DNA of 53,218 nt, taken from NCBI GenBank assembly GCA_017472605.1, contig JAFUPV010000060.1, positions 1 to 53,218 on the forward strand, in the 5' to 3' direction. Each line of letters starts with the position of its first letter. The stretch's first letter is position 1. The DNA comes from Lachnospiraceae bacterium (GTDB lineage: Bacteria > Bacillota > Clostridia > Lachnospirales > Lachnospiraceae). The notes beneath the pieces are model-generated. The model did no database searches. It saw only the letters and a program-made list of their open reading frames with translations, and had not been told where the DNA came from. The position numbers and the translations under genes are program-made. Below are positions 10,648 to 52,000 of this stretch, in pieces.

Positions 10648-10720
10648 TGAGACACGCGGGATTCGAACCCGCGACACCTTGATTAAAAGTCAAGTGCTCT
10701 ACCGACTGAGCTAGTATCCC
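10648..10720 (-). tRNA. tRNA-Lys (anticodon TTT)
   Basis: A 73-nt cloverleaf. The acceptor GGGATAC pairs with GTGTCTC, the D arm is GCTC..GAGC, and the anticodon arm is CTTGA-CTTTTAA-TCAAG. The T arm is GCGGG-TTCGAAT-CCCGC and the discriminator is A. CCA is not encoded. It is the last gene of a four-tRNA operon read leftward. Confidence 0.95.
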
Positions 10721-10723
10721 AGA

Positions 10724-10796
10724 CTGGGCTAGTTGGATTCGAACCAACGTAGTGCAGGAGTCAAAGTCCTGTGCCTTACCGCTTGGCGATAGCCCA
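10724..10796 (-). tRNA. tRNA-Gln (anticodon TTG)
   Basis: A 73-nt cloverleaf. The acceptor TGGGCTA pairs with TAGCCCA, the anticodon arm is CAGGA-CTTTGAC-TCCTG, the T arm carries GTTCGAAT and the discriminator is G. It lies 3 nt upstream of tRNA-Lys in the same transcript. CCA is not encoded. Confidence 0.94.
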
Positions 10797-10863
10797 AGAA
10801 ACAGCAGGCAATAATCTCTACAGACAAAACTCCGTGTAGTCAGCAGGAATAAAGAACCTGCAG

Positions 10864-10938
10864 GGTGGGTACAGGGATTCGAACCCTGGGCCTCCAGAGC
10901 CACAATCTGGCGCGCTAACCAACTGCGCTATACCCACC
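10864..10938 (-). tRNA. tRNA-His (anticodon GTG)
   Basis: A cloverleaf with acceptor GTGGGTA / TACCCAC. An extra G at the 5' end (the G-1 identity element of tRNA-His) stands opposite a C discriminator. The anticodon arm is CCAGA-TTGTGGC-TCTGG and the T loop is TTCGAAT. About 67 nt without a visible gene separate it from tRNA-Gln. Confidence 0.94.
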
Positions 10939-10965
10939 ATACTGAACGTTTGAAAGAAAATCGAG

Positions 10966-11040
10966 TCGGGGTGACAGGATTCGAACCTGCGGCCTCCTGG
11001 TCCCAAACCAGGCGCTCTAGCCAAGCTGAGCCACACCCCG
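10966..11040 (-). tRNA. tRNA-Pro (anticodon TGG)
   Basis: A cloverleaf with acceptor CGGGGTG / CACCCCG, anticodon arm CCTGG-TTTGGGA-CCAGG, T loop TTCGAAT and discriminator A. It is the first tRNA after the operon promoter. CCA is not encoded. Confidence 0.95.
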
Positions 11041-23200: not shown

Positions 23201-23229
23201 TTGACTTTAACCAGAAAAGCGTCTATAAT
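23201..23229 (+). promoter_or_regulatory. promoter of the B12 operon
   Basis: TTGACT, a 17-bp spacer and a perfect TATAAT, ending about 20 bases before the cobalamin riboswitch. It starts 20 bases after the GH3 stop, so the B12 operon has its own start. Confidence 0.88.
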
Positions 23230-23249
23230 GCAAACGAATGATAACGAAA

Positions 23250-23426
23250 ATATGGTTCGAGGGCAATGCCCGGGACGAGAGAGGGAATCCGGTGAGAATC
23301 CGGAGCAACCACCATTACTGTATTTGACTGATCAAAGGCATCAATACCATTGGAAGGAATTCTGAGAAGGGATGCGTTTGGTGGCGTTTTGCCACAGGTC
23401 ATAAGTCAGGAGACCTGCCATGTTTG
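23250..23426 (+). promoter_or_regulatory. cobalamin (B12) riboswitch
   Basis: The aptamer shows the conserved B12-box pieces in order: GGGAATCCGGTGAGAATCCG with its short helix, an ACTGT segment, a GGCG..GCCAC hairpin loop and AAGTCAGGAGACCTGCC at the 3' side. The ends pair through ATATGG and CCATGT. It binds adenosyl- or other cobalamins and lowers expression of downstream genes. An intrinsic terminator lies about 140 bases on, so control is probably by premature termination. Confidence 0.9.
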
Positions 23427-23563
23427 AGTAATTCGGCTTAACACAGCTTGGGTGAGAAGGGTGCAGCCGGTTTATCGTTGTACGTGCAGGTTCGGCAAAG
23501 GATTGTCACGGATTCGTGACCAGATTTGTCGGAGCTCTGTTTGCATACGCGGATAAATCAGTT

Positions 23564-23601
23564 GGGCTCTTTCGAATGGAATGTTCGGAGGAGCCTTTTT
23601 A
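23564..23601 (+). terminator. riboswitch-linked intrinsic terminator
   Basis: GGCTC and GAGCC enclose a partly paired stem (TTTCGAA / TTCGGA) followed by TTTTT. It lies in the 5' leader, between the aptamer and the first gene, and would end transcripts when B12 is bound. The mutually exclusive fold was not modelled. Confidence 0.75.
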
Positions 23602-23604
23602 ATT

Positions 23605-23694
23605 GCTTAGCCGTCCTGGCGGATGTGTCGGCGACACGTTCCGTTGGATGTATGAGAGCGGTGAGTCCGATGAGGGCGCTTGCGCCTCATTCGG
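23605..23694 (+). repeat. dispersed palindromic repeat, copy 3, with second hairpin
   Basis: The first 50 bases align with copies 2 and 4 (starting GCTTA, core GCGACACGTT, then TTGGATGTATGAG). Then comes a strong hairpin, CCGATGAGGGCGC and GCGCCTCATTCGG with a 2-nt loop, at 23667-23694. It sits in the leader of the B12 operon, after the terminator and about 105 bases before the first start codon. Confidence 0.6.
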
Positions 23695-23799
23695 TGAGCG
23701 CCGCGATAACGAGAGAAACGTGCGCAGACAAAAAGACATGTGATACCGGAAGGAGCAAATTCGGACACTCAGAGTAAGTACAGAAAGGAAGAGGTATTT

Positions 23800-25191
23800 A
23801 TGATGAAGAAGAGAATTGCAGTGGGAGCAGCAATGCTGCTTGCAACAGGAACAATTGGAATGCAGGTGATGGCAGCGGAAGCAGCGGACGTTTCCGTGGA
23901 ACCGATCGAGGTCTATGTGACGATCGCGGACAGCGAAGGCGCGCTTGCGCTGGCACAGGAACCGGTTGCGGTGACGGATATGGATGACGATGGTGTTCTG
24001 ACGATTAATGACGCACTGTACTGTGCCCATGAAGCGTGCTACGAAGGCGGGGCAGAAGCAGGCTATGGCTCTGCGTTTGGCGACTACGGACTGAGCATGA
24101 CGAAGCTCTGGGGAGCGGAAAATGGCGGAAGCTATGGCTACCGTGTCAACGATCAGTCGGCGTGGAGTCTGGAAGATCCGGTCGCGGACGGGGACTATGT
24201 CAATGCCTATGTCTATACCGATCTGACCGCATGGTCTGATACGTATTGCTATTTTGATGCACCAATTGGCCTGGCAGAGAAAGAGGAGGAAATCACACTT
24301 GTCCTGAATGCAGCAGGGTACGATGAAGCATACAATCCGATTGCTGTTCCGGTTGCAGGCGCGGTGATCACGGTTGATGGAGAAGCAACGGAATTTGTGA
24401 CGGATGAAGAGGGAAAGGTGACTCTGACTCTGGATGAGGAAGGAATCCATGTAATCAGTGCACAGTCTGAGACGCAGAATCTGGTACCGCCGGTCTGCAC
24501 CGCTGCCGTTGGTTTTAAGGCGGTTACTGTGACGATTTCCGATGATACGGGAGCGCTTGTCCTGATTCAGGAACCTGTCCTTGTCAATGATGCCGATGAA
24601 GATGGAGCAATCACGATCCATGATGCGCTCTTCTGTGCCCATGAGCAGAACTATGAGGGCGGGGCAGAGGCAGGCTACGCGTCCGAAGAAGGAGAGTATG
24701 GCCTGAGCATGACACTGCTTTGGGGCGTTGATAATGGCGGAAGCTATGGCTACTATGTGAACGACGTGTCTGCATGGAGTCTTCTGGATCCGGTTGCAAC
24801 CGGTGACTGCATTAATGCCTATGCGTTTACCGATCTGACCGCCTGGTCTGACACCTATTGCTACTTTAACAGCAGGGAGATGGATGTTACAGTCGGTGAT
24901 GCAGCAGAACTGGTTCTTCTGGCAGCTGCCTTTGACAGCGATTACAATCCGATCACCGTTCCGGTTGAAGGTGCAGTGCTTGTGGTTGACGGTGAGGCAA
25001 CCGATATCGTGACGGATGCGGAAGGAAAAGCCGTATTTACCGTTGAGAAGGAAGGTTTGTACATAGTCAGCGCTGTTTCTGACAGCCAGACACTGGTACC
25101 GCCGGTATGCCTGATCCATGCGCAGGAAACGGAAGTGACTGCAGAGGGAGTTGCAGATGGTTCCGCAGAGGAGACGGCTGACGGGGAATAA
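23800..25191 (+). CDS. secreted protein with two transcobalamin-like beta modules and EF-hand loops
   Basis: A 463-aa protein. The signal peptide (about 1-26) ends VMAAEA. Two tandem modules follow (about 35-235 and 236-450), each with four parts. First comes an EF-hand-like calcium loop (DMDDDGVLTIND at 60-71, DADEDGAITIHD at 264-275). Then a GLSMT..LWG..NGGSYGY..VND..AWSL..PV..GD segment resembles DUF4430, the transcobalamin beta domain. A DLTAWSDTYCYF segment follows, and last an Ig-like stretch (PVAGAVITVDGEATEFV). There is no LPXTG or C-terminal helix, so it is free or held by another surface protein. It is the first gene after the B12 riboswitch. Cobalamin or corrinoid capture is the natural inference, not shown. 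AAGGAAGAGG precedes the ATG. Confidence 0.75.
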   Translation: MMKKRIAVGAAMLLATGTIGMQVMAAEAADVSVEPIEVYVTIADSEGALALAQEPVAVTDMDDDGVLTINDALYCAHEACYEGGAEAGYGSAFGDYGLSMTKLWGAENGGSYGYRVNDQSAWSLEDPVADGDYVNAYVYTDLTAWSDTYCYFDAPIGLAEKEEEITLVLNAAGYDEAYNPIAVPVAGAVITVDGEATEFVTDEEGKVTLTLDEEGIHVISAQSETQNLVPPVCTAAVGFKAVTVTISDDTGALVLIQEPVLVNDADEDGAITIHDALFCAHEQNYEGGAEAGYASEEGEYGLSMTLLWGVDNGGSYGYYVNDVSAWSLLDPVATGDCINAYAFTDLTAWSDTYCYFNSREMDVTVGDAAELVLLAAAFDSDYNPITVPVEGAVLVVDGEATDIVTDAEGKAVFTVEKEGLYIVSAVSDSQTLVPPVCLIHAQETEVTAEGVADGSAEETADGE

Positions 25192-25217
25192 GAGGAAACG
25201 AAGCGTGGGAAGGATTT

Positions 25218-25281
25218 GATGCCGGAAGAGAAAGCTTTTGATGCCGGCAGGGCGAGAGTCGATGCCGGCAGGGGGAAACTC
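25218..25281 (+). repeat. three short direct repeats (21-22 nt)
   Basis: GATGCCGGAAGAG, GATGCCGGCAGGG and GATGCCGGCAGGG begin three adjacent units of 22, 21 and 21 bases in the gap between the two B12-linked surface genes. No coding role is supported; they precede the ribosome-binding site of the next gene by about 50 bases. Confidence 0.55.
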
Positions 25282-25342
25282 TGTTTTGCGGAGATCAACA
25301 GAAAAAACGGCAAACGATGTGCCGACAGCAGAAAAGGTATCT

Positions 25343-27097
25343 ATGAAAAAGCGAATTTTATCGATAATCAGTTCTTTCTTATTAATAATCATACTCACTG
25401 TCAGCCCTGCATTGGCAGCGGCTGGCAGTGATGCCGGTATCGTCGGTGAAGCGCAGGAACTCATCGACGATATTCTGCGTTATAAGCAGGAGCAGGCAGG
25501 AGCAGATTCGGTTCAGGAATGGATCGATACCGGACTGACAGAGAAAGCAGGAACTTCGGCAGAGTGGTATGTTCTTGCCCTGAGTCAGAGCGGAGCATAT
25601 GATTTTTCCTCCTATCAGAGGGCACTGCTTTCTTATCTGGAGCAGAAAACGGTAAGCAACGCGTCAACCCGCCAGAAATATGCGATTGCGCTGCTTGTCT
25701 CAGGCAGCGCGGATTCCTATGTGACGCAGGTTATGGAGGATTCCATCGGCCAGCTTGGAATCATGAGCTGGGTCTATGGGCTCCATCTGATGAACAATGG
25801 ATGCAGGAGCAGTCAGGTGAGCGAAGAAGAAGTCATCCAGACGCTGCTTGATCTGCAGCTGGAGGATGGAGGCTGGAGCCTGCGGGGAACTTCAGCGGAG
25901 ACGGATGTGACAGCGATGGTGATTCAGGCGCTGGCTCCCCATTGCGAAGCGGAGACGTCGGTGGAAGCGGCGGTGGAAAAAGCACTTGAACTTCTTTCCT
26001 CCAGACAGCTGGAAGGCGGAGATTTTGCCAGCTATGGGGTGGAAAATCCGGAGAGTACCGCGCAGGTGCTGACGGCAATTTCCGCCCTTGGCATGGATGC
26101 CGGAGCCGACGAACGCTTTATTAAGCAGGGAAACACGTTGATTGACGGCCTGAGAAAGTATCAGCTGGAGGATGGAAGCTTCAGCCATACGGTTGGATCC
26201 GGATTCAGTGAGTCGGCGACCGTTCAGACGCTGTACTCCCTGGTTTCCTATGTGCGGATGGCGGAGGGGAAGAGCGGACTGTATCTGTTTGACAGTCAGG
26301 TGTCGGAAGGACTGCCGGGAGATGAAGAGTCAGCGGCAGAGGCAGAGCAAATACCGGAATCGGTTTCTGAGGAGAGAACAGAAAGCTTCGGAACCGGCGA
26401 CACGAAAGACGATGCAGCTTCAGAATGCAGTATGAATTCAGTGGAAAACGTGTATTCAGAGGACAGCACAAATTCTGAAGAAAACGCAGCTTCAGAGGCG
26501 GGGAATGGATTTGGCTATAAAGGTCTGGTATCCGGTATCATTGTGATTCTGGCAGCTGCGGCATGCATCTTCTTTTTTGCAGCTGGAAAACGGAACCGGA
26601 AAAATTTCCTGGCAACCGCAGTATTCGCAGCGCTTGCAATTCTTTTTGTGCAGCTAACCGACTTCCAGTCCGCCGACAGCTATTATAACGGCGGCGATGT
26701 AAAGAAGGAGAATCCGACAGGAACTGTTACTATGACGATCCGCTGCGACACGGTAACCGGTCTTTCCGATTCGGAATACATTCCTGCGGATGGCATTGTG
26801 TTGAAAGAGACAGAATTTGTCATTGACAGCGACGATACCGCTTTCGACATTCTGGTGGAAGCAGCACGGAAATATAACATTCAGATGGAAAACAGCGGTG
26901 CAGAAGGAATGGCCTATATTGCCGGGATCAACTATCTCTATGAATATGATTTCGGAGAATTCTCCGGCTGGATGTACTATGTGAACCGGAAAGCACCGTC
27001 TGTGGGCTGTGATCAGTATGTCCTGTCAGACGGTGATGTAATTGAGTGGCTGTACAGCTGCGAACTTGGAAAGGATCTGGACCGGAAACGGGAGTAA
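25343..27097 (+). CDS. membrane-anchored transcobalamin/intrinsic-factor-like protein
   Basis: A 584-aa protein. A signal peptide (about 1-25, ending ALAAA) leads an alpha/alpha-toroid region (about 30-335) with prenyltransferase/squalene-cyclase-type repeats: LEDGGWSLRG, EGGDFASYG and LEDGSFSHTV. An acidic, Ser/Glu-rich linker follows, then two helices (about 394-415 and 422-442), then a DUF4430 domain (about 458-576; DTAFDILVEAARKYNI, FSGWMYYVNRKAP). Toroid plus DUF4430 in this order is the architecture of animal intrinsic factor and transcobalamin. The helix pair puts both domains outside the cell. It sits between a second DUF4430-like protein and an ECF transporter under a B12 riboswitch. 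AAAGG precedes the chosen ATG; upstream ATGs lack a signal sequence. Confidence 0.8.
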   Translation: MKKRILSIISSFLLIIILTVSPALAAAGSDAGIVGEAQELIDDILRYKQEQAGADSVQEWIDTGLTEKAGTSAEWYVLALSQSGAYDFSSYQRALLSYLEQKTVSNASTRQKYAIALLVSGSADSYVTQVMEDSIGQLGIMSWVYGLHLMNNGCRSSQVSEEEVIQTLLDLQLEDGGWSLRGTSAETDVTAMVIQALAPHCEAETSVEAAVEKALELLSSRQLEGGDFASYGVENPESTAQVLTAISALGMDAGADERFIKQGNTLIDGLRKYQLEDGSFSHTVGSGFSESATVQTLYSLVSYVRMAEGKSGLYLFDSQVSEGLPGDEESAAEAEQIPESVSEERTESFGTGDTKDDAASECSMNSVENVYSEDSTNSEENAASEAGNGFGYKGLVSGIIVILAAAACIFFFAAGKRNRKNFLATAVFAALAILFVQLTDFQSADSYYNGGDVKKENPTGTVTMTIRCDTVTGLSDSEYIPADGIVLKETEFVIDSDDTAFDILVEAARKYNIQMENSGAEGMAYIAGINYLYEYDFGEFSGWMYYVNRKAPSVGCDQYVLSDGDVIEWLYSCELGKDLDRKRE

Positions 27098-27168
27098 GGA
27101 AGATTTTTTCAAGAGCAGGGCGCGGGACGGGAGTGAGCGGTTTTGCGCAGGATGAGAGGAGGATGGAA

Positions 27169-28041
27169 ATGAGAACAATTGCAGAATATAACCCATTTGC
27201 GGTAACGGTCTATTTTCTGGCAGTCGCAGGCACGACCATGTTTTCTATGAATCCGGTGATTCTGGTGCTGTCTCTTGCAGGTGCGCTGAGTTATTTCTTT
27301 GTACGGAACGGTTTTCGGGAAATGAAAAGCCATCTGGCGTTCTTTCTGATGTTTCTTTTCATGGCGCTGCTGAATCCGCTGATCTCTCACAACGGTGTGA
27401 CGGTTCTTTTTGTCATGAACAACAATCCGGTAACGCTGGAAGCGCTTGTTTACGGAATTGCGGCGGCAGCGATGATTCTTGCAGTTCTGTACTGGTTCCG
27501 TTCCTATTCCCAGATCATGACCAGCGATAAGCTGCTCTATGTGTTCGGCGTGCTCTCGCCCAGGCTTGCGCTGATTCTTTCCATGGCAATCCGCTATGTG
27601 CCGCTGTTTGGAAGCCAGGTAAAAAAGGTAAACCAGGCACAGAAGGCGCTGGGGCTCTACAAAGAGGATAATCTGGTGGACAGCTTCCGCGGCGGAGTCC
27701 GTGTCTTCTCTGTCATGGTTACCTGGGCGCTGGAAAATGGAATCATTACTGCGGACAGCATGACGGCAAGGGGCTATGGATCCGGGAAGCGGTCCCACTA
27801 TTCCACCTTCTGCTTTCGCAGAGGCGACTGGATCCTTATGGGAATCAGCTGCGTCCTTCTGATTGTGACATGGATCGGACTGGGTGATTTTACCTTCAAC
27901 TATTATCCGGCGCTGAAGGTGTCGGCGCTTCAAAAAACAGGACTTATTGGCTGCATATCTTATGGGCTGCTGGCATTTCTTCCTGTCATCATCGAAGAAA
28001 AGGAGACACTGAAATGGAATTGCTTACAATCGAAAATCTGA
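27169..28041 (+). CDS. ECF transporter transmembrane (T) component
   Basis: A 290-aa membrane protein of the EcfT/CbiQ family with about six helices. The cytoplasmic coupling motif TARGYGSGKR (Ala-Arg-Gly near residue 200) marks the site that contacts the ATPases. It joins the ATPase dimer to the substrate-binding S protein. Two ATGs lie close together; AGGAGG abuts the first and is six bases from the second, so I chose the second. Its 3' end overlaps the ATPase gene by 28 nt. The rightward gene order T, A-A, S under a B12 riboswitch fits a cobalamin importer of the CbrTUV kind, from memory of that family. Confidence 0.87.
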   Translation: MRTIAEYNPFAVTVYFLAVAGTTMFSMNPVILVLSLAGALSYFFVRNGFREMKSHLAFFLMFLFMALLNPLISHNGVTVLFVMNNNPVTLEALVYGIAAAAMILAVLYWFRSYSQIMTSDKLLYVFGVLSPRLALILSMAIRYVPLFGSQVKKVNQAQKALGLYKEDNLVDSFRGGVRVFSVMVTWALENGIITADSMTARGYGSGKRSHYSTFCFRRGDWILMGISCVLLIVTWIGLGDFTFNYYPALKVSALQKTGLIGCISYGLLAFLPVIIEEKETLKWNCLQSKI

Positions 28042-30023
28042 GCTTTACCTATCCGCTTTGCAGTACACCGGCGGTAACGGATGTCTCTTTTTCCGTGAAA
28101 AAGGGAGAATTTGTTTCCATCTGCGGTGCGACCGGAAGCGGAAAATCAACCCTGCTTCGTCTGCTGAAGCGGGAACTGGCTCCGCTTGGCGAGCGCTCGG
28201 GACAGGTTTATCTGGACGGTACATCGCAGGAAGCGCTGTCCGCTGATCAGGCGGCCCGCTCTATTGGCTTTGTCATGCAGCGCCCGGAGCATCAGCTGGT
28301 AACAGACAAGGTCTGGCATGAGCTGGCGTTTGGTCTGGAGAATATGGGAACGCCGCAGTCGGTAATCGCACGCCGCATCGCGGAAATGGCTTCCTATTTT
28401 GGCATTGAAGACTGGTTTGAAAAAAATGTAACGGAACTTTCCGGCGGCCAGAAGCAGCTGCTGAATCTGGCGGCTGTGATGATCATGAATCCGAAAATCC
28501 TGATTCTGGATGAGCCGACCGCTCAGCTGGATCCCATTGCCGCCTCAGACTTCATTGCAACGCTGAGAAAGCTGAACCGGGAGCTTTCCCTGACGATTCT
28601 GATCGTGGAGCATCGGCTGGAAGAAGTCATTCCGATCAGTGACCGGCTTCTTGTGATGGAGAAAGGAAGGCTTCTTGCCTATGATGAGCCGCGTGCGGTG
28701 ATCGAGGGACTGAAAGAGAAACCGGAACTGCTGTGTGCCATGCCTGCGGCTGCAAGACTGTACCATGCCGTGCAGGGAACCGGGGAATGTCCGCTGGATA
28801 TCAGTGAAGGAAGAGCCTATATTCAGGCAAATTTCGGAAATCAGATCCGCAGACTGCCGGACAAGGTGGATGGATCAGGGAAACCGGGAGCCGTTGGAAT
28901 TGTGACAGAGTCGGGGAAACCGGGAGCCGTTGGAATTGTGGCAGAGTCGGGGAAATCGGGAGCCGTAGGAAGCGCGGCAGAGTCGGAGAAGTCGGGAGCC
29001 GCAGGAAGCGCGGTAGGGATTGCGGCAGAGTCAGGAAGAACGAAAACAGGAGAAAACGCGATACAGACGGGAAGAATCGGTCGAGCGGCAAAATCAGATA
29101 AAACAGCCCTCGAACTGGAGAATGTCTATTTCCGGTACGGAAAGCATCTGCCGGATGTGCTTCATGGACTGAATCTGAAGGTGTATGAAAATGAGATTTT
29201 CTGCCTTCTCGGCGGAAACGGTTCCGGAAAAAGCACAACACTTTCGGCATCTGCCGGTCTTCTGAAGCCTTACAGCGGTAAGGTTCGTGTCTTTGGAAAG
29301 CGTCTGAAGGAGTATAAAAACCAGTCACTCTATCGGGAGTGCCTGACCATGCTGCCTCAGGATGTGCAGACGGTTTTTCTGAAAAACACCGTCCGTGAGG
29401 AACTGGAGGAAGCAAAAGCGGAAGTGTCCATGCTTCCGTTTGATATCACCTGTCTGTATGAGAAACACCCCTATGATCTGTCTGGCGGAGAACAGCAGCT
29501 GGTGGCTCTGGCAAAGGTTCTTGCCACAAAACCGAAGCTTCTTCTTCTGGATGAGCCGACCAAGGGACTGGATGCCCATGCGAAGCTTGGTTTTATCCGG
29601 ATCATGAAGGAATTGAAAGCAAAGGGAATGACCATCGTTGCCGTTACACATGATGTGGAGTTTGCGGCCCTCTGTGCCGATCGCTGCGCTCTGTTTTTCC
29701 GTGGAAATGTTGTGTCTGACGGTGTGCCTGCGGACTTCTTCTCTGAGAATCATTTTTATACAACAAGCGCTTACCGGATGGCAGGAGATTACTATGACCG
29801 TGCCGTTACCATTGAGGAGGTTGCAGCACTTTGCCGGCTGAACCGGAAGGAGGCAATCCAGCCGGGCTGGAAAGGAATGAGCAGTGCAGCCGGGAAGCAT
29901 GGGGCAGAAAAAATGGCCGAGGCCGGGAAGATGACTGAAGCCGGGAAGACAGAAGAGGCAGGAAAGATGGCTGAGGAAGAGAAGACAACCGGAGCAACAG
30001 AGAGGACTGGTGGCAGCAGATGA
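28014..30023 (+). CDS. ECF transporter fused double ATPase (A-A')
   Basis: A 669-aa protein with two complete ABC ATPase domains. The first (about 1-235) has GATGSGKST, LSGGQKQ and ILILDEPTAQLD. The second (about 365-605) has GGNGSGKST (401-409), LSGGEQQ and LLLLDEPTKGLD. ECF systems normally use two separate ATPases; here they are one chain. The linker holds four 12-16-residue repeats (SGKPGAVGIVTE type), and the tail is a low-complexity Ala/Gly/Lys/Glu stretch (EAGKMTEAGK). It powers the importer from the cytoplasm. It overlaps the S gene by ATGA and the T gene by 28 nt, so all three are translationally coupled. Confidence 0.92.
   Translation: MELLTIENLSFTYPLCSTPAVTDVSFSVKKGEFVSICGATGSGKSTLLRLLKRELAPLGERSGQVYLDGTSQEALSADQAARSIGFVMQRPEHQLVTDKVWHELAFGLENMGTPQSVIARRIAEMASYFGIEDWFEKNVTELSGGQKQLLNLAAVMIMNPKILILDEPTAQLDPIAASDFIATLRKLNRELSLTILIVEHRLEEVIPISDRLLVMEKGRLLAYDEPRAVIEGLKEKPELLCAMPAAARLYHAVQGTGECPLDISEGRAYIQANFGNQIRRLPDKVDGSGKPGAVGIVTESGKPGAVGIVAESGKSGAVGSAAESEKSGAAGSAVGIAAESGRTKTGENAIQTGRIGRAAKSDKTALELENVYFRYGKHLPDVLHGLNLKVYENEIFCLLGGNGSGKSTTLSASAGLLKPYSGKVRVFGKRLKEYKNQSLYRECLTMLPQDVQTVFLKNTVREELEEAKAEVSMLPFDITCLYEKHPYDLSGGEQQLVALAKVLATKPKLLLLDEPTKGLDAHAKLGFIRIMKELKAKGMTIVAVTHDVEFAALCADRCALFFRGNVVSDGVPADFFSENHFYTTSAYRMAGDYYDRAVTIEEVAALCRLNRKEAIQPGWKGMSSAAGKHGAEKMAEAGKMTEAGKTEEAGKMAEEEKTTGATERTGGSR
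28875..29030 (+). repeat. in-frame 36-nt tandem repeat in the ATPase linker
   Basis: Three 36-nt units and one 48-nt unit encode SGKPGAVGIVTE, SGKPGAVGIVAE, SGKSGAVGSAAE and SEKSGAAGSAVGIAAE. The first two differ by two bases only, showing recent duplication. Copy number may vary between strains. Confidence 0.8.
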
Positions 30024-30706
30024 TTGTAATCAAGAGCAAAAAAGTCCGGACAGTCCTGAAAATTTCAATTCCTTTTGCGGCAATCCCGCTTCTTGTGCTT
30101 CTTGGAGCTGTTGCGTTTCCGCAAAAACAGCATCTGCTTGTGTCCTTTGGTGTGGCGGTGCTGGCAGTCCTTCTGTTTCTGACCGGTTTTGAGCGGAAGA
30201 TAGTGGGATCCAGGCGAATGGTAATTGTCGCAGTCATGACGGCACTGTGCATTGCCGGGCGTTTCATTCCGCTGTTCAAACCGGTGACAACGCTGACCAT
30301 TCTGACTGCCATGTATCTTGGCGGCGAGGCCGGATTCCTCGTCGGCGCGTTGGCAGCGCTGCTGTCCAATTTCTATTTCGGACAGGGTCCATGGACACCG
30401 TTCCAGATGCTGGCATGGGGAATGATTGGGCTCCTGGCCGGATTTCTGGCAAAGCCCCTGAAGAAGAGCAGGGCATTTCTGCTTGTGTTTGGTGTCCTGT
30501 CCGGTGCTGTATTCTCCTTCATCATGGACATCTGGACCATTCTCTGGTATAACGGAAGCTTTCAGCTGGAACGCTACCTGCCGGTTCTCGTGACCGCAAT
30601 TCCCCATACTGTGATGTATGCGGTGTCCAATTTCCTGTTTCTGTGGATGTTTGCGAAGCCGTTTGGGGAGAAGCTGGAGCGGGTGAAGGTGAAGTATGGG
30701 GTGTGA
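30020..30706 (+). CDS. ECF transporter substrate-binding (S) component, putative cobalamin type
   Basis: A 228-aa membrane protein. Two N-terminal helices (about 12-58) precede an S-component core with MVIVAVMTALCIAGRFIP, TAMYLGGEAGFLVGALAALLSNFYFGQGPW and three or four further helices. The GPWTPFQMLAWG segment is typical of S proteins such as CbrT/ThiW-like ones. It binds the vitamin in the membrane and hands it to the T/A module encoded just upstream. Substrate by context: cobalamin or a precursor, because the operon starts with a B12 riboswitch. The ATG overlaps the ATPase stop (ATGA). Confidence 0.8.
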   Translation: MIVIKSKKVRTVLKISIPFAAIPLLVLLGAVAFPQKQHLLVSFGVAVLAVLLFLTGFERKIVGSRRMVIVAVMTALCIAGRFIPLFKPVTTLTILTAMYLGGEAGFLVGALAALLSNFYFGQGPWTPFQMLAWGMIGLLAGFLAKPLKKSRAFLLVFGVLSGAVFSFIMDIWTILWYNGSFQLERYLPVLVTAIPHTVMYAVSNFLFLWMFAKPFGEKLERVKVKYGV

Positions 30707-43034: not shown

Positions 43035-46000
43035 ATGAAAGGAAAGGTAAGACGGTTTCTTAGTCTGTTTCTGACAGTACTGATGATTGTTTCTCCGATG
43101 TCGTCCTCCATTCTCGGATCAGGACTTGGTGTGACAACTGTTACAAAGGTTGTTGCAGGTGAGATCGAGACGGGTGTGAGCGATGCAACCGTGGAGACTG
43201 CGGTTGTTGAAACGACGGTCGCGGAGACAACGTCAGAAGCGGAAGAGGAAGAAACAACAACGACAACGGCTGCAGAAGTATCGGTGTCGGATTCGAGTGA
43301 AACGACAGCGGCATCGACCGGTGCAGGGGAGAGCCTGTCTGACACACCACTGGAAAATGGTGGTGCAGAGGATGTGCCTGCAGCGGATCCGGCTGACAAT
43401 GGTAATGAGGAAAATGGAGCCGGTGAGAGTTCTGCCGCCGATGAAAACCCGGGAAGTGAGTCGGTTGTGACGAGTAGTTCTGCTGGTGAAGCTGCTTCTG
43501 TTTCGACAGAGGAAACAGCGGGAACGACGAGCAGTTCTGCGGAGGTTGAGACGACAACTGAAAACCAGTATCCGATAAGTCAGCTGGGTGAGGCAGAGGG
43601 AAGTGGCTCAGAGAATGTGCCTTCCGAATCATTGACATCTGCAGCTGATAATCAGGTAGCATCGATTGCTGACGGTGAAACAGAAATAGATAGTGTCATT
43701 GATACGGAAACAGAGCTGAGATCAGCACTCGCAGCAGGCGGTAGCGTTGCGATTGGAGGGAATATCTCTGTTAACAATGCAATTGAAATTCCGGAAGGAA
43801 TTACTGTAACTCTTGATTTGGCAGGATATACGATTACTGGTGGATGGAACGGAGAGAGCCAAACGAATCATATTTATGTGCTGACCAATTATGGTTCGTT
43901 AACGGTTTTAGATTCAATGGCTGAAGGAAAGATTGTTTCTCGTGGTGTGTATAACTATGGAACAATGATTCTGAACAGCGGAACAATCGAAGCCTGTGAT
44001 GGAAATGGCGGGTATGCGGTAAATAATGAAAGTGGTTCCACATTTACGATGAATGGAGGAACTGTTGTTGCAAGCTATGAAGACGGTGATGCTGCTGTTG
44101 CAGGAAATTATGATGCAACAGCATTGGATGTTCCGGATGGATGTATAGTTGTTATTAATGGTGGAACGATAAAAAATGTAAGTAACTACACATATGCAAT
44201 TGAGTCCTACGGAACGTTGGCAGTTAGCAACAGTTCGGTAACAGTTGAAGGCAATCATGGTGCAGTGGCTGTTCACGGGGGAACAGTAAGTATTGCTGAT
44301 GGTAATTTCTACTGCAATGGTGTAAGCGGTCAGTCAGATCATGTGATGTATCTGTCAGATGCCGGTAAGATTTGTGTAGATGGAGGTAGATTTTATCACA
44401 GAGGATGCGACAGCGGTGCTGCCAATGGTGCAGCTGTCTATGTCGATGGGGATGCAGCGGTAGTAACAATCAATTCTGGTGAATTTATGGGAATGGACAT
44501 GACTGTATCCGGTAATGCGAATACAGCGATTTATGGAGGCTCTTTTACTACAGCTGTTACCAGAAGTGAGACAGATTGTATTGAAGAGTATGTAGCAGAA
44601 GGCGCAGTTATTACCCTTAGCGGCTCTGTGTATCCTCCTTCTGCAATCCAGTATATCAACATGGAGAATGGATCATGTACAATTACATCGGATAGCATTT
44701 ATTACATAACGGGAACAGCAACGAATTCTCTTACAGTAAAAAGCGATGCTACTATTACACTGGATAATCTGACGATTAATGCGGAAGCAGGAAGTTCTGC
44801 AATCAGCATTGAAAGTGGTAATGTAACATTGATTGTGCAGGGAAACGTCAATCTGACTGGTGGCGATAATGGAGCTGGTATTTATGTGGCTGAAGGTGCT
44901 TCTGTAACGATTCAGACGGCATGTACGGACAGTGATTGTCTTACTGCGGTCGGAAATAACGGAATCGATGATGCAAGCGGCGCAGCTGGTATTGGCGGCA
45001 CTTATGAAGCAGGAAAAAGTGGTACAATTATCATTGATTGTGCTACTGTTATTGCGAAGGGATATGGCGCCCATGCTTCCGGTATCGGATCCGGATATGG
45101 AAGTACATGCGGATCGATTACTATCAAGAATGGATCAAACGTTACCGCATATGGCGGCTACTATGCGGAAGGAGGACTTTTGCAGACTTCATATGGAAGC
45201 GGCGATCCGGAAGGTGGTGCCGCAATCGGTGGAGGTGCAAAGACAAATGCGGTAAATGCTCCGATTACGATTGATGGAAGCCTGGTAAAAGCATATGGCG
45301 GATCAAAGGCAGCGGGTATTGGAGCAGCGTTTTGGGCAAGCTGTGAAGCAATAACTATCAGTGGCTATAGTGATATTGAAGCATATGGAGGAAGTTCTTC
45401 TGCCGGCATTGGTACAAGCCGTGCAGGAAGCAACGGTGTTTATGCTAATATTTCCATTATTAATTCAGAAGTAACTGCCATTGGAGGAGAGTATGGATCC
45501 GGTATTGGAGGCGGATATAACGGAGATTCTCTTTCTACGCTTCCAAAAACAACGATTACCATTGAAAACGGTACTGTAGAAGCAACAGGTGTAAATGGCG
45601 GAGCTGGTATCGGAGGTGGATACAAGACGAATAATCTGGATATCAGGATTACCGGTAATGCGGTTGTGACGGCTACGGCAGGGGTTTTGGAAGATGGAAG
45701 TAATAAAACCATCGCACAGAAGTGTGCATCTGCAATTGGAAGCGGTGCAAACGGAAGCGGTACATTTACAGGTGCAACAGTTGAAGTATCTGATGGCACA
45801 ACTGTAACAGTAAATACTTATAGGGGCGGCAAGGCTGCAATTGAAGGGCTCAGCGTAATACCTGAAAATGTTGAAATTAATGCACTTGCATATGGTGCAG
45901 CGTTTATTACGGCAAATGATGGCGAAGAAGTAGCGTATATGACCATCGAATCGGCTCTTATGGCGGTGAAAGAGGGAGAAACAGTAACTGTTTATGCGGG

Positions 46001-49000
46001 CAGTTATAATATGGGTACAACCAATTTTACTCTTCCTGCAAACGTAACAATCGTTGGTGAGACCGATGAGAATGGTGAAAATCTTGTTACCATTAATAAC
46101 AGTCTGAGCCTGAATGCAGGCAATGTTACATTGAAAAATGTTAATATTGTGTCAACCGGAGACGCATTTCAAATTTCGGGAACCGGTATCATCAAAGGCT
46201 GTTCTCTGACTGGTGCGAATGGTACACGCTGGTGCTATGCAAATGGCGGAGAAGTGGAGTTTGCTGACTGTATTATTACCGGTTCTACTTATGGTGTTCA
46301 CTTTGACGGCGGAAACGGTGAAGCGGATTCGGTTACGATCAGTAACTGTGTCATTACCGGTTGGACAAGCTTTGCCAGAACGGTTGAATCAGTTTCTATC
46401 ACAGGAACAACCTTCGCGGATGGTGCTTTTGATTATGTTCGTTTCTTCCAGAATGCAGAAATGAAGGACTGTGCATTCGAATCAGCGGATATGGCAGTTG
46501 ATGTTTCTGATAGTGTAGAAATCACAGTAACTGCAGAAAATCTGGTTTATGCAGATAAAAGCGATGCCGCAGATGTCTTCGACAACAGGGATGCATATTT
46601 CAATGATATTTACTATAACGGCGAAAAAATCGTGATTCAGGCGGTAATCACAGACACCAGTGAGGAGACTGATGATGTGTATTACAGGACATTGGCACAG
46701 GCGTTGGCAGACTGTAAAAACAAAGAGACTGTAACTCTGTTGGCTGACATTGATCTGACTGACATTGCCTGGACACCTGTTGAAAGTTTTACCGGTACGT
46801 TTGACGGTAATGGCTATGTAATCAGCAATCTGAAGATTGAAGGTGAAGAAAATGCGGCACTGATTGCGAAGGCTTCCAACACGGTGATCCAGAACATAAC
46901 TATTGAAAATGCAAAAGTGACAGGAACAAAAAATGTCGGTGCGCTGGTTGGCTCTTTAGGTGGTTCAACAAAGGTAATTAACTGCCATCTGGATGGAGTT
47001 ATTGAGATTGCGGGCAATTATAAGGTTGGCGGTCTGGTCGGAGAAGGATACGCAAGATTTGAAAATTGTTCTGTACAGGCAGATTCCGGTTCTTATGTGA
47101 AAGGTATGTATTCGGCAGTTGATTTGGAAGGTGATAATGTCGGTGGTTTAACCGGATTCCATGGCGAGGGCAGTCAGGCATCGTTTACCAACTGTTCCGT
47201 ATCCGGTCTGACGATTGAAGGAACCAGAAAAGTCGGCGGTATCGTGGGATCTGCATTCCAGAATAATGTGATTGAGAGCTGCACAGTAACTGACACAGTA
47301 ATCGGCACAAATGCAGACACAGCATATGCAGATGCAAATGCGAAGACGATGGGTATCGGAGGTATCGTTGGTCTGTACACAGCAGATGGTTCCAATGATG
47401 GTTCCATGAATAACTGTTATGTGAAGAATGTTACATTCACCAATGAAAACGCGGTAGAAGGTAACACTGGTATCATGACCGGCGGTCTGCGGGGAAGCGA
47501 AACACCGGTTGAGCCGGTCGTATCTTATGGAAACAATACATTTGCATCCTGTACCGGCTATGAGAATGAGTATCTGATCCGTTATTTTGTCCAGGTAACT
47601 GATTCGGAGGGCAATGCAACAAATTACTTTACTGTTAAGAATGCAGTGAATGCTGCATCGGCAGATTCTGTAATTACCCTGCTCGGTGATGTGAAAGAAA
47701 ATGTTTCTGTGACAAAGAAACTTATTCTGGATCTGAACGGATACACATGGACAGCGCCGGAGTCAAACTCCGCAATCGATGTGTTAGTAGCTGACGGTAA
47801 TTTTACTGTGCGGGATACCAGTGAAGCAGGTACCGGTGCAATTGTCTCTGAGACCTCTGGCTGGGAAACGATTTATGTGAAAAATGGAACGGTGACACTG
47901 GAAAGCGGAACATTGACCGGTTTGGATTATGGCGTATATGTTTCTGCAAATGGTACCCTTAACGTAAACGGAGGTACGATTGAAGTCGGCGATGGCTATG
48001 GCATCGTAATCATGAATGAAGGCGCTGCAGTCAATGTGAATGGCGGCAAGGTTATCTCGGAAGGATACGGTATTTTCGGCAATGGAATGGAGGAGTATTC
48101 CGGTACGGCTATTCATGTGACAGGTGGTACGATTACAGGTACGCTTGCAGGAATTTACCATCCGCAGGGCGGAGAATTGAAGGTAAGCGGCGGTACTATC
48201 AGTGGAGGAACCGGTATTTATGCAAAGTCCGGTACGATTCAGGTAACGGGAGGTACTATTCTTGGAAACGGAGCAGAAACAGATTATGTATATGATCCGA
48301 ACACCGATGGATGTCAGCCGACCGGAGACGGAATTGTGATTGACTGCTGGTCCTATCCGTGCGGAAATGCGACCATCAAGATCACAAACGGAACAATCAA
48401 GTCAGTGAATGCAAACGCAGTTGCTGTTTATGTAAGCAAGGATAACAGCGGCGAGATTCCTGAGAAATTTATCAGTGGCGGAATGTATTCTTCTGATGTA
48501 AGTGCGTATACAGCAACCGGTCTGACCTGTGTTGCAGATGGTACCGGAATGTACACCATCAAGGCAGCACTGGAAGTTATGAAAATTTCAGGCGGTGTTC
48601 CATATTTCTATGCAACTCTGAAGGCTGCACTGGAAGATGCGGAAGATGGAGATATGCTGTATCTTCTTGGCAATGTAACTTCTTCGGAAGCACTTACTGT
48701 TGATACGGATGTTACCATCATGGGACAGGGATTAAGCATTACATTCTCTGGTCATCAGGGCTTTGTAGTTACAGAAGATGTGGCATTTACGCTGGAAAAT
48801 GTAACACTTGTAAACAATAACATGCCTCACAGAGGCGCAACCCATCCGCAGCTGATCGACATTAAGGCAGCAGCAGATGTAACGCTCAATGACGTAGCAA
48901 CAGGTAAGGGAACACACTATGTGGTGAACATGAGAGGTGCATCCAGTGGCGCAGACCTGAAAATTAATGATTCAGAACTGTATGGTTCCAATGTTCTGAA

Positions 49001-52000
49001 CATCTGGGGCAGTGATCATGATATCATTATCGAAGGTTCTGAACTTACCAGCACAAGCCTGTATGAATATGAGTTCGGTGCGGTTGCATTTAATGGAAAC
49101 AGCAGCTATGTGAGCAATCAGAATACACTTTCTGTCGATGCAGAAAGTACACTGACAGCAGTACGGTCCAGTGATGAGAATTACAGCTATCTTGTGATTA
49201 TGCCGGAGAGCGATAACAATGGTGTTACTGTTGTTGTGGAGGAAGGTGCAGTCCTGAATCGATTAAGTGAAGGTGACGCACTGGTAGCCAACGCAGCTGC
49301 CAGAATTGGTAATGTATATTACAGCAGCTTAACAGCAGCTCTGGAGGCCGCAAAAGATGGCGAAACAATCATTCTTGTTGCTGATATTACAGCAGAGTCA
49401 TTCACTGTCGATGGAAAAGAGCTCACCATTGATCTGAATGGACATACCATGTCTGTGGACGGTGACAATAAGTTCATCAATGATGCAGATGTTACCATTA
49501 AAAACGGTACACTGGATTTGGACAATGCGAAAGCAGAAGGCGATGCAATTTTCTGTGTAGGAAATTACAGCACAACAGCAGCCCTGACATTAGATGGTGT
49601 TACCGTAACAGGCGATGGTTACAGTTCTGCATATGCAGTATTCTATGTTTACGGAACCAGTGAACTGGAAATTACGGCCAGTGAAGCGACGCTGTCAAAC
49701 GATCAGGCGGAAGCAGGAGGATTCATCAAAGCAGAGTCCGGTGCAGACGGTGTGGTAAATCTGAAGGATTCTACAATCAACCTGACGAATGCACAGATTG
49801 GTTTCCTGGATGGAACCGTAACGATGAATGATGTTGAACTGACCATTAAAGGCGGAAAGAATGCGATTAACCAGTCTGCGTTGACCGTGATCGATTCCAC
49901 CATCGTAATTACTGACTGTGACGGACGGGCACTGACTTTGAAAGACGGTAATGTAACGGTTACAAATTCTACTCTGGATTTCTCCGGTGCAACAGAGGGG
50001 GAGATTCGGTTTAAGGAAGCGGTTGAACTGACGATTGATGATGCATCTTCCATCACCACATGCAATGTATATGCGGATGCAGTTGGAGGAGGACTGGTTA
50101 ATGGTCAGATTGTGACAGGAACAGAGAAAAATCCGTCAATCGTATATGAGAACGAGGTCAGTGAAGCAGTTCTCGAGAATCCGGCATGGACAGCAGCAGT
50201 TATCACAGTGGATGACGAAGGTACAGAAACTGTGACCGGTTACTACATGACTCTGGCAGAAGCAGTTGCAGCAGCAAAAAGCGGATCAGTGGTTACAATT
50301 TTGACTACAGGTACTTATACCGTACCGTCCTTTACGAATAAGGAATTGACAATCCAGGGCGGAACCGGAGATGCAGCGGATGTTGTTCTTGACATGAGCA
50401 ATGAAGTTATACTGACTGGATCTGATGTAACCTTTAAGGATCTGACACTTACTTTTACAGATGACTCTACTTATAAAGGATTCCATCATGTAAGTTCTGA
50501 AACCTATGAAAACTGTATTATTAACGGACAGATGTTTACGTATGGTGATGCTGTATTTACCGACTGTACCTTCAATCAGACAAGCAGCGATAGTTATAAT
50601 CTCTGGACATATGGTGCGGAAACGGTTGAATTGATTGATTGTACGTTTAACTGTGCTGGAAAATCGGTGCTTTTGTATAATGAAGGTAACAATGTAACCG
50701 ATCTGACAGTTACTTCCTGTGAATTCATTGCATCCAGTGCAGTGGAGGGAAAAGCTGCGATTGAGATTGATACCAGCCTGATGCAGAACAAATTGCCGGA
50801 CAAAACCAGTCACATCGTGATTGATTCGGAGACAACTGCAACCGGTTTTGCGTCTGGTTCTGTAAGCGGAAGTTCTCTGTGGAACGACAAGAAGACTCAG
50901 ACCAACCTGACTGTTACAGTGGATGACGTTCATGTATGGCCAATGGAGGTTGCTGAGATTGGCGATATTCGATACTATACTCTTCAGTCTGCAGTCGATG
51001 CGGCAGAAGTGGGTGATACGATTTGCTTGCTTACCAATGTAAATCTCAGAGAAGGAACGGTGAAGGTTGCTAAAGATGATTCGATCATTCTGGATCTGAA
51101 CGGATGGACAATTACCGGAGAGACAAAAACGACATTAACTGCAAATCATCAGATGATTCTGAATCAGGGTAATCTGACGATTATAGATAGCAGTGAATCT
51201 GGAAATGGAACAATTTCATATACTTATTCTGGTGACAGCACGAATTATTCCTGTTATGCCAATACGATTTCGAACGTTCAGGGTACTCTGACAATCGAAG
51301 GCGGAAGATTTGAGAATAATACCCGTGTTGAAAGTCAGATCAGTTATGTAATTGATAACCTGACCAATGGTTCTCTTGGCGATGCAGTACTGACGATTAA
51401 AGACGGAATCTTCTCTTCTCCGAATTATATCTGTGTACGCGGCTTTGCAAATTCGACCAGCTGCACAAACAGCATTACCATCGAAGACGGTACCTTTACC
51501 GGCCGTGTTCAGCTGCATGATGCCAATGCAAATGCCAATAAGGCAGAGCTTAAAATCAGCGGTGGTACATTCAATGCAAACTCGGAAGAGGGGGATGCAT
51601 TCTACATTTATGCGCAGGGCGACAGCTCCGAACTGACGGTAAGCGTTACCGGCGGTGATTTTACCGGTAATGTGAGAACAGTGAACGGAAGCGGTGATGC
51701 GGTGAATGGATTCATTACCGGCGGTACTTATAGCATTGACGTGACAGAGATGTGTGCGGAAGGGTATGAGGCTGTGGAGAGTGAGGATGGAAGATTTTTC
51801 GTAGCAAAGGCAGTTTGCTTTAATCGTTCAATGCAGGCATTCTTGAGTTTAGAGTCAGAAGTTTATTTAAATATAGCTTTTAGGCTTGATAATTTGAATG
51901 ATATTGATCCAGTTAGCATTGAAAATAAAGTTGGTTTACTAATTTGGGATGCAGATTCTTTGCCTGAAGATCCAACTATCAATAATTGTGAATACATTAT

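What the first reader, a model, noticed from the sequence alone, without database searches (positions are those of the whole stretch)
23201..30706. B12-riboswitch operon joining transcobalamin-like surface proteins to an ECF importer
A consensus promoter, a cobalamin aptamer and an intrinsic terminator precede five genes in one direction. Two encode exported proteins with DUF4430-like (transcobalamin beta) domains, and three encode the T, fused A-A and S parts of an ECF transporter. The 584-aa protein has alpha/alpha toroid then DUF4430, the order in animal intrinsic factor and transcobalamin. Known: DUF4430 is the transcobalamin-type C-terminal domain; B12 riboswitches mark cobalamin genes. 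Inferred: these proteins catch cobalamin outside the cell and pass it to the S component.
Basis: partly seen in the sequence, partly recalled or inferred. Interest (0 to 1): 0.88.

Follow-up and report, generated by a model that had tools for sequence, protein, structure and literature searches.

The report
Bacterial intrinsic-factor-like vitamin B12 importer
A bacterium carries, behind a vitamin-B12-sensing RNA switch, a surface protein whose predicted shape is closest to our own B12 carriers intrinsic factor and transcobalamin, next to genes for a B12-type membrane importer; such systems were predicted in 2007, and this case makes the idea directly testable.

Summary
The operon is real. A near-consensus promoter, a cobalamin riboswitch (RF00174, 92 bits; the only one found in the genome) and an intrinsic terminator precede five genes. 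Gene 2 has an alpha/alpha toroid, a two-helix hydrophobic hairpin and DUF4430. Its AlphaFold2 model (pLDDT 87) was compared with 350,542 PDB chains: the 15 best Foldseek hits are all intrinsic factor, transcobalamin or haptocorrin entries. Genes 3-5 are T, fused A-A and S parts of an ECF importer; the closest solved relative of S is in 6FNP, the B12 importer ECF-CbrT. In 66 related loci with at least 8 kb before S, DUF4430 is present in 64, the toroid in 62, a cobalamin-type riboswitch in 58. The genome has B12-binding-domain proteins and no CbiD match. A second layout, riboswitch, short DUF4430 protein, lone S gene, recurs in the same family. Gene 1 is a conserved surface protein, but DUF4430 in it is not shown. 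The idea is not new: Burroughs et al. 2007 predicted B12 scavenging by toroid/SLBB proteins in CbiO/CbiQ operons. The riboswitch link, full-length fold match, hairpin and lone-S layout go beyond the passages I read. Cobalamin binding and hand-over to S remain inferred.

The parts
23201..23229 (+). sigma-70-type promoter, TTGACT-17-TATAAT
   Evidence: consensus scan, 11 of 12 matches; 2 promoter-like sites in the region against 0.8 +/- 1.0 in shuffles
23236..23436 (+). cobalamin riboswitch aptamer (RF00174)
   Evidence: 92.1 bits, E 1.3e-21, full-length model match
23564..23596 (+). intrinsic terminator, probable expression platform
   Evidence: 15-pair stem plus T run; 23558-23606 folds at -21.4 kcal/mol, z -4.45. 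That it works as the switch is inferred
23800..25191 (+). gene 1: 463-aa protein with signal-like start, two copies of a conserved domain each followed by a beta-sandwich; function unknown, probable accessory capture or scaffold protein
   Evidence: homologue found in 52 of 66 long loci; alignment A4; DUF4430 not shown
25343..27097 (+). gene 2: 584-aa intrinsic factor/transcobalamin-like protein
   Evidence: model pLDDT 87.4; top 15 PDB fold matches are IF, TC, HC entries
25343..25420 (+). signal-peptide-like N terminus of gene 2
   Evidence: read from the sequence; no signal-peptide predictor was run
25433..26263 (+). alpha/alpha toroid domain of gene 2 (approximate ends)
   Evidence: SQHop_cyclase_C over cut-off, Prenyltrans below it; helices 5-281 of the model
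26516..26656 (+). two-helix hydrophobic hairpin between the two domains of gene 2
   Evidence: model helices 366-387 and 393-412 with the basic stretch KRNRK at 390-394; membrane location inferred from hydrophobicity, no predictor run
26831..27058 (+). DUF4430 (transcobalamin beta-type) domain of gene 2
   Evidence: 62.7 bits; all 59 members of A3 match at E up to 1, best 2.1e-19
27163..28041 (+). gene 3: ECF T component
   Evidence: CbiQ PF02361 30.4 bits, cut-off 25 (searched from 27160)
28014..30023 (+). gene 4: fused A-A ECF ATPase
   Evidence: two ABC_tran stretches, TIGR04520 350 bits, cut-off 315
30020..30706 (+). gene 5: ECF S component, CbrT-like
   Evidence: PF07155 and PF12822 over cut-off; best solved relative 6FNP chain A, E 2.4e-9, entry 6FNP being ECF-CbrT

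Best explanation
This is a B12-repressed cobalamin (or corrinoid) uptake operon. When intracellular B12 is low the riboswitch lets transcription pass the terminator. The 584-aa protein is held at the outer face of the membrane by a two-helix hairpin, so that its toroid and its DUF4430 domain both face out and close on a corrinoid between them, as the alpha and beta domains of intrinsic factor and transcobalamin do. The corrinoid is then handed to the CbrT-like S component and enters, powered by the T and fused A-A parts. Gene 1 is probably a second surface protein helping capture or positioning. Shown by computation: the riboswitch, the gene set, the fold match, the family of S, and the conserved linkage. 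Inferred: ligand, binding, topology of the hairpin, hand-over, and the sign of regulation.
For: RF00174 at 92 bits with promoter and terminator. S relates to chain A of 6FNP, the ECF-CbrT entry, which carries B12 and cobinamide (passages of PMC5997447). The gene-2 model's top 15 hits of 350,542 PDB chains are IF, TC and HC entries with alignments of 561-597 columns, gaps included, best E 2.5e-7; the isolated TC beta domain 5NO0 (rank 41) matches at target TM 0.74. DUF4430 profile: 3U7Z E 1.2e-4; 3U7Z and the TC and IF beta domains share one CATH superfamily (passages of PMC13385337), and a DUF4430 domain at the C terminus of transcobalamins is stated in PMC4350170 (passage). Linkage: of 66 S loci with at least 8 kb upstream, DUF4430 64, toroid 62 (55 in one ORF), T 65, riboswitch 58. 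Model R1 finds 57 elements at E below 0.01 in 1.30 Mb, all at the head of this operon, the next match having E 0.4 (27 of the 57 trained the model). Rfam calls at gathering score, independent of R1: RF00174 in the operon in 17 of 50 loci given and in L107, AdoCbl-II in 5 of 8 loci chosen for their compact element. From the DUF4430 side: 27 of the 30 best-scoring DUF4430 loci of the own family have a T, A or S homologue within about 1.5 kb (L012 and L031 by the ATPase alone); 17 of 47 DUF4430 places in 36 genomes, the window included, have a riboswitch under 10 kb upstream on the same strand. The genome has three B12-binding-domain places and no CbiD match.
Against: No binding or transport data. 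ECF-CbrT transports B12 in liposomes as a purified complex (passages), so a capture protein is not needed in principle. The toroid resembles terpene cyclases by sequence, IF/TC not being found for it; Pfam's eukaryotic Cobalamin_bind model is not among the 25 families shown of 124. The sequence hits of the DUF4430 profile to Transcobalamin-1 (E 0.14) and -2 (E 1.4) are not significant, and unrelated proteins score between them. Whole-chain superposition is loose (rmsd 9.5-13.7, query TM 0.38-0.42), which I put down to different domain placement; 60 residues, nearly all in the linker, have pLDDT under 50. The Latilactobacillus curvatus version has no Rfam hit at gathering score and no R1 hit; its toroid rests on tblastn alone, Pfam finds none. 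8 of 66 long loci lack a riboswitch by R1 or RF00174 (RF00174 was not run on all of them). L110 has T-A-S without toroid or DUF4430, and L065 an S gene without T. Gene 1 is missing from 14 of 66. A BtuFCD importer in the own genome was not searched for.
Confidence: 0.8

Rival explanations
1. The operon imports another corrinoid or a B12 precursor (cobinamide, a different cobamide, pseudo-B12) rather than cobalamin itself; the mechanism is otherwise the same.
For: ECF-CbrT also carries cobinamide (passages of PMC5997447); gut bacteria make many cobamides (general knowledge); the genome has no CbiD match, and late salvage genes were not searched.
Against: The S relative and the riboswitch point to corrinoids in general and do not favour precursors.
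Confidence: 0.3
2. The toroid is a terpene-cyclase or prenyltransferase-like enzyme acting outside the cell, and its neighbourhood with the importer is incidental.
For: Significant PDB hits of the A3 profile are terpene and squalene cyclases only; 55 of 59 members hit SQHop_cyclase_C at E up to 1.
Against: In the fold search IF, TC and HC entries outrank every cyclase shown; conserved linkage to S, T and the riboswitch, toroid in 62 of 66 loci; signal-like N terminus; in L. curvatus the toroid-like protein carries a Gram-positive anchor.
Confidence: 0.05
3. The surface proteins do not bind free vitamin but dock host B12 carriers or other bacteria's corrinoid proteins and strip the vitamin from them.
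For: Gene 1 is a multi-domain surface protein of beta-sandwich type; many related loci come from gut or rumen assemblies by their record titles.
Against: Nothing in the sequences points to docking; gene 1 is missing from 14 of 66 loci.
Confidence: 0.07
4. The importer carries cobalt or another metal, the DUF4430 protein being a metal-binding protein.
For: T matches CbiQ; 3U7Z is titled putative metal binding protein.
Against: S is CbrT-like, and Pfam lists no CbiM or CbiN match for genes 1, 2, 3 and 5; the 3U7Z superfamily includes TC and IF.
Confidence: 0.05

Closest known systems
Transcobalamin-type SLBB proteins of Gram-positive bacteria (Burroughs et al. 2007, PMC1796856)
   Same: Exported toroid plus transcobalamin-type beta-grasp domain, operon with CbiO-like ATPase and CbiQ-like protein, at times a second extracellular SLBB protein, hosts usually lacking key B12 synthesis genes, proposed B12 scavenging (passages read).
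   Different: The main text holds no occurrence of the word riboswitch, and the passages I read name no CbrT-like S gene and no membrane hairpin. They rest on sequence profiles, structure comparison of transcobalamin itself, and genome context.
Animal intrinsic factor, transcobalamin, haptocorrin
   Same: Toroid then beta domain; best fold matches in the PDB, alignments 561-597 columns long.
   Different: Secreted soluble proteins read by receptors (general knowledge); here a hydrophobic hairpin joins the two domains, identity 10-12% in those 15 hits, and there are no B12-binding data.
ECF-CbrT (CbrUVT) vitamin B12 transporter
   Same: S component related to chain A of 6FNP (E 2.4e-9; 6FNP is ECF-CbrT); same T-A-S gene set as the plasmid genes called CbrV, CbrU, CbrT in L. 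plantarum MF1298 (passage), whose S gene is hit by ours at 35%.
   Different: L. delbrueckii CbrT lies in a nrdJ-cbrS-cbrT-pduO cluster (passage), and the purified complex transports by itself. The MF1298 plasmid does carry a DUF4430 gene second downstream of S.
RUMGNA_00854 (PDB 3U7Z; Ruminococcus gnavus by recall of the locus prefix)
   Same: Closest solved relative of the DUF4430 domains (E 1.2e-4) and of the short DUF4430 protein of the lone-S layout (E 7.5e-12).
   Different: A 101-residue chain without toroid; titled putative metal binding protein.

Membership tests
Intrinsic factor/transcobalamin/haptocorrin-like fold | N-terminal alpha/alpha toroid followed by transcobalamin-type beta domain | tested here: met
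   Domain calls, model, top 15 fold matches with alignments of 561-597 columns
Intrinsic factor/transcobalamin/haptocorrin-like fold | Sequence membership of the toroid in the animal carrier family | tested here: not met
   PDB profile search with A3 lists cyclases, not IF/TC/HC; so it is filed as a fold relative, not as a member of the animal family
Intrinsic factor/transcobalamin/haptocorrin-like fold | High-affinity cobalamin binding between the two domains | not testable with these tools
   needs protein
Transcobalamin-type SLBB / DUF4430 (PF14478) | Gene 2: match over the curated score | tested here: met
   58.9 bits, cut-off 23.8; 59 of 59 members of A3 match at E up to 1
Transcobalamin-type SLBB / DUF4430 (PF14478) | Gene 1 also a member | tested here: inconclusive
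   not listed by Pfam for the window's gene 1; profile comparison marginal; fold search uninformative; compatible order of strands and helix
CbrT-type ECF B12 transporter | S component homologous to CbrT | tested here: met
   6FNP chain A E 2.4e-9 over residues 65-227, second hit E 0.12; 6FNP is ECF-CbrT
CbrT-type ECF B12 transporter | T and two ATPase parts present | tested here: met
CbrT-type ECF B12 transporter | Transports cobalamin | not testable with these tools
   needs uptake assay
Cobalamin riboswitch RF00174 | Covariance-model score over gathering threshold | tested here: met
   92.1 against 31.5 bits
Cobalamin riboswitch RF00174 | Ligand-dependent control of the operon | not testable with these tools
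   terminator present, no RNA data

The most novel reading that the evidence does not exclude
A class of ECF importers works with a dedicated outside capture protein. The transcobalamin-type domain, with a toroid joined by a membrane hairpin, or alone as a short exported protein beside a lone S gene, loads the S component, against the usual picture that ECF S components catch their vitamin unaided. The animal B12 carriers would then be descended from, or structurally modelled on, a bacterial ECF feeder protein.
Probability: 0.4. Interest if true: 0.8.

Novelty: new member of a known kind. Interest (0 to 1): 0.55.

Why it matters
Identifying the B12 transport systems of many human gut bacteria is stated to be an open problem (PMC6593275, passage). 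A capture protein built like intrinsic factor, tied by conserved operons and cobalamin riboswitches to a CbrT-like importer, would explain uptake in many bacteria whose records are titled Lachnospiraceae, Oscillospiraceae, Ruminococcus and the like, predict direct competition with the host carrier for corrinoids, give a function to the orphan structure 3U7Z, and bear on a bacterial source of the animal carriers, as proposed in 2007.

Tried and rejected
Gene 1 as DUF4430: the sequence pattern looks alike by eye, but hhalign gave probability 1.7; on cleaner alignments the score is reached by 8 of up to 200 column shuffles (mean 12.8, sd 2.4, observed 17.4) and exceeded by the reversed profile; Pfam does not list it for the window; fold search uninformative. 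Left open, not claimed.

Finding IF/TC by sequence from gene 2: failed; only the fold search reached them.

First riboswitch survey with RF00174 alone (50 of the 80 loci; 30 not given) looked mixed, and the hits were mapped to loci by coordinates only. I accepted 17 hits over the gathering score whose letters end in a B12-box-like stretch just upstream of the operon, set aside three below it (L054, L064, L084), left out what look like coordinate coincidences from other contigs, and left out L063 as ambiguous. The compact elements, mainly of Ruminococcus, were then found by a motif script and model R1. I first thought them a new class; Rfam places them with AdoCbl-II (over its gathering score in 5 of 8 loci) or, below threshold, with AdoCbl (L051, 34.9 bits against 50), so this novelty was dropped. 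R1 was trained on 27 of the elements it finds, so its counts are partly circular.

Literature: none of the 6 papers that hold the word DUF4430 (listing only, save passages of PMC4350170) is listed as being about ECF uptake, but Burroughs et al. 2007, which uses the name SLBB, is clear prior art; this lowered my novelty rating.
Full report
WHAT IS THERE. The + strand of 23201-30706 holds a promoter-like site (23201-23229, 11 of 12 matches), a cobalamin aptamer (23236-23436, RF00174, 92.1 bits, E 1.3e-21), an intrinsic terminator (23564-23596) and five genes. The scan's counts of promoters and terminators are not above its shuffles; position, near-perfect hexamers and the fold of the terminator (z -4.45) carry the argument. 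The aptamer is the only RF00174 hit in the 3.68-Mb genome, and DUF4430 has one place in that genome, in gene 2. Gene 2 (584 aa) has a signal-like start, toroid repeats, a two-helix hairpin and DUF4430 at 497-572. Genes 3, 4 and 5 are the T component, a fused pair of ECF ATPases, and an S component.

THE S COMPONENT. A phmmer search of solved structures gives 6FNP chain A as the only significant hit, E 2.4e-9 over residues 65-227; the next is E 0.12. 6FNP is the entry of ECF-CbrT, shown to carry B12 and cobinamide in liposomes (passages of PMC5997447). In plasmids our S gene hits 11 records, among them pMF1298-5 of Lactiplantibacillus plantarum, whose ECF genes were named CbrV, CbrU, CbrT by its authors (passage) and which carries nrdJ, an adenosyltransferase, cobS and a DUF4430 gene nearby.

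THE INTRINSIC-FACTOR-LIKE PROTEIN. A 59-row alignment of gene 2 with 58 relatives was folded: mean pLDDT 87.4, pTM 0.73, 60 residues under 50, nearly all in the linker. Against 350,542 PDB chains Foldseek ranks 2PMV (human intrinsic factor) first, E 2.5e-7, and the 15 best of 602 matches are all intrinsic factor, transcobalamin or haptocorrin entries, with alignments of 561-597 columns, gaps included, so spanning both domains (residue ranges are not printed). Ranks 16-28 are terpene or squalene cyclases; later ranks also hold prenyltransferases and other toroid enzymes. Superposition of the whole chain is loose (rmsd 9.5-13.7, query TM 0.38-0.42), while the isolated transcobalamin beta domain 5NO0 (rank 41) fits at target TM 0.74, rmsd 4.0. 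By sequence the toroid reaches only cyclases significantly, so it is a fold relative and not a sequence member of the animal family. The DUF4430 profile finds 3U7Z (E 1.2e-4); Transcobalamin-1 (E 0.14, second of 14) and Transcobalamin-2 (E 1.4, eleventh) follow, not significant and with unrelated proteins between them, but aligned at their C-terminal domains. A single short DUF4430 protein, L117, gives 3U7Z E 7.5e-12 and Transcobalamin-1 E 0.042. A recent paper places 3U7Z, transcobalamin and intrinsic factor beta domains in one CATH superfamily (passages of PMC13385337), and PMC4350170 speaks of DUF4430 at the C terminus of transcobalamins (passage).

LINKAGE, STARTING FROM S. A scan of the 84,980-species collection with S found 86 relatives and kept 80 loci. 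In the 66 loci that hold at least 8 kb before S, DUF4430 is found in 64, the toroid in 62 (in the same ORF as DUF4430 in 55, in a separate ORF in 7), T in 65, gene 1 in 52, and a cobalamin-type riboswitch in 58 (tblastn E 1e-4). All 66 have an ATPase hit, but that of L065 is a distant ABC protein (28%). L113 has the order riboswitch, T, A-A, S, gene 1, gene 2. L065 has S without T, and L110 has T-A-S without the surface proteins. The 14 loci with less DNA before S were not counted.

RIBOSWITCHES. A covariance model built from 27 compact elements and run over 82 sources, 1.30 Mb, gives 57 matches at E below 0.01 (window and 56 loci), all on the + strand at the head of this operon (in L109 two further ORFs lie between it and the toroid gene); the next match has E 0.4. 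27 of the 57 trained the model. Independent of it, Rfam calls at gathering score: RF00174 in the operon in 17 of 50 loci given; in L041 (one of the 17) and L107 of the 8 loci; AdoCbl-II (RF01689) in 5 of 8 loci chosen for their compact element. So the operon is under at least two architectures of cobalamin riboswitch. The Latilactobacillus curvatus copy has the order LPXTG protein, DUF4430, T, A-A, S; the LPXTG protein is toroid-like by tblastn with gene 2 but has no toroid hit in Pfam, and no riboswitch was found there.

LINKAGE, STARTING FROM DUF4430. Of the 30 best DUF4430 loci (one per genome), 27 have a T, A or S homologue within about 1.5 kb; L010, L022 and L028 do not, and L012 and L031 rest on the ATPase alone. 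Of the 150 DUF4430 and 151 riboswitch places copied from the listings (both listings cut by the tools; the window's riboswitch added), 36 genomes have both; 17 of their 47 DUF4430 places have a riboswitch less than 10 kb upstream on the same strand, the window being one of the 17. By my own estimate, about 0.1 would be expected by chance.

A SECOND LAYOUT. Of 12 such regions fetched, seven (L115-L120, L126) show a lone S-like gene of 160-208 aa near the riboswitch; in five of them (L116-L119, L126) a short ORF of 144-166 aa with a DUF4430 profile match stands directly before it (weakest L119, E 4.8e-7). In L115 and L120 the DUF4430 place is there but its ORF was not in my list. The starts of the L117 and L126 proteins look like lipoprotein signals (read from sequence; sub-threshold lipoprotein hits). 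The lone S proteins are related to the operon S (hhalign probability 95.4, E 2e-8); the only PDB hit of L117 S is 6FNP, E 0.026, which is weak.

HOST NEED. The own genome has three B12-binding-domain places (by my reading of the translations they look like a corrinoid protein beside methyltransferase-like genes, MetH, and a third protein), no CbiD match and no BtuR/CobA-type adenosyltransferase match. It therefore looks like a B12 user that cannot make the corrin ring. The assembly is 95% complete; PduO-type adenosyltransferase and BtuFCD were not searched, and absence is provisional.

GENE 1. It is conserved (52 of 66 long loci), with a signal-like start, often with a C-terminal anchor-like end in relatives by eye (Pfam Gram_pos_anchor in 3 of 25); the window's copy is doubled and lacks that end. 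Its model (pLDDT 81.8, second half lower) shows in each half two strands, a helix, then strands, followed by a beta-sandwich. The order of elements is what a transcobalamin-type domain would have, but sequence tests and fold search do not support it.

MECHANISM. Most likely: low B12 opens the terminator; gene 2 catches a corrinoid between toroid and DUF4430 at the outer membrane face; S takes it over; T and A-A drive entry. The hairpin, with its short basic loop (KRNRK) between two hydrophobic helices, would keep both domains outside by the positive-inside rule (general knowledge). Binding, hand-over and regulation are inferred. Against the need for a capture protein stands the fact that purified ECF-CbrT transports by itself.

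PRIOR ART AND NOVELTY. Burroughs, Balaji, Iyer and Aravind 2007 (PMC1796856; passages read) defined the transcobalamin-type SLBB clade, described bacterial fusions to toroids, operons with CbiO-like and CbiQ-like genes, hosts usually lacking key B12 synthesis genes, proposed B12 scavenging, and proposed transfer to animals. The word riboswitch does not occur in the main text held. The system is therefore a new member of a known, predicted and as far as I found untested kind. What goes beyond the passages I read: the riboswitch linkage, the CbrT-like S, the full-length fold match, the membrane hairpin, and the short DUF4430 plus lone S layout. My ten literature searches cover open-licence papers only; most subscription papers and preprints are not held, so the absence of a later report is not established.

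Noticed in passing
28014-30023: The fused ATPase is 669 aa, while many relatives' ORFs are near 550 aa (stop-to-stop lengths); the extra length is repeat-like (GKPGAVGIV-type units between the two ATPase domains, EAGKM-type units at the C terminus).
   Followed up: no
23800-25191: Gene 1 is internally duplicated here and lacks the C-terminal anchor-like end seen by eye in many relatives.
   Followed up: partly
L060 3543-3618, L086 3584-3659, L089 3583-3658, L059 3036-3111, L114 3287-3364: AdoCbl-II riboswitches head the operon in these Ruminococcus-titled records; other compact elements fall below Rfam thresholds (e.g. L051), and many are followed by a similar hairpin-like stretch (CGTTTTTGGACAATGAAAAACG type).
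   Followed up: partly
L116-L119, L126: Two-gene units of short DUF4430 protein plus lone ECF S gene close to a cobalamin riboswitch; they suggest a role for PDB 3U7Z.
   Followed up: partly
L130 14575-16396, L131 3553-5437: In two Lactobacillus-group plasmids a gene annotated fucose-binding lectin II sits beside a DUF4430 gene near the ECF set.
   Followed up: no
genome G260 (same genus as the window): It has a cobalamin riboswitch but no DUF4430 match, so the operon may be patchy within the genus.
   Followed up: no
43035-52820: A single + strand ORF of 3261 aa, not examined.
   Followed up: no
10648-11040: Four tRNA genes in a row on the - strand.
   Followed up: no
L110 6507-9696: A T-A-S set related to this one without toroid, DUF4430 or R1 riboswitch hit; possibly another substrate.
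   Followed up: partly
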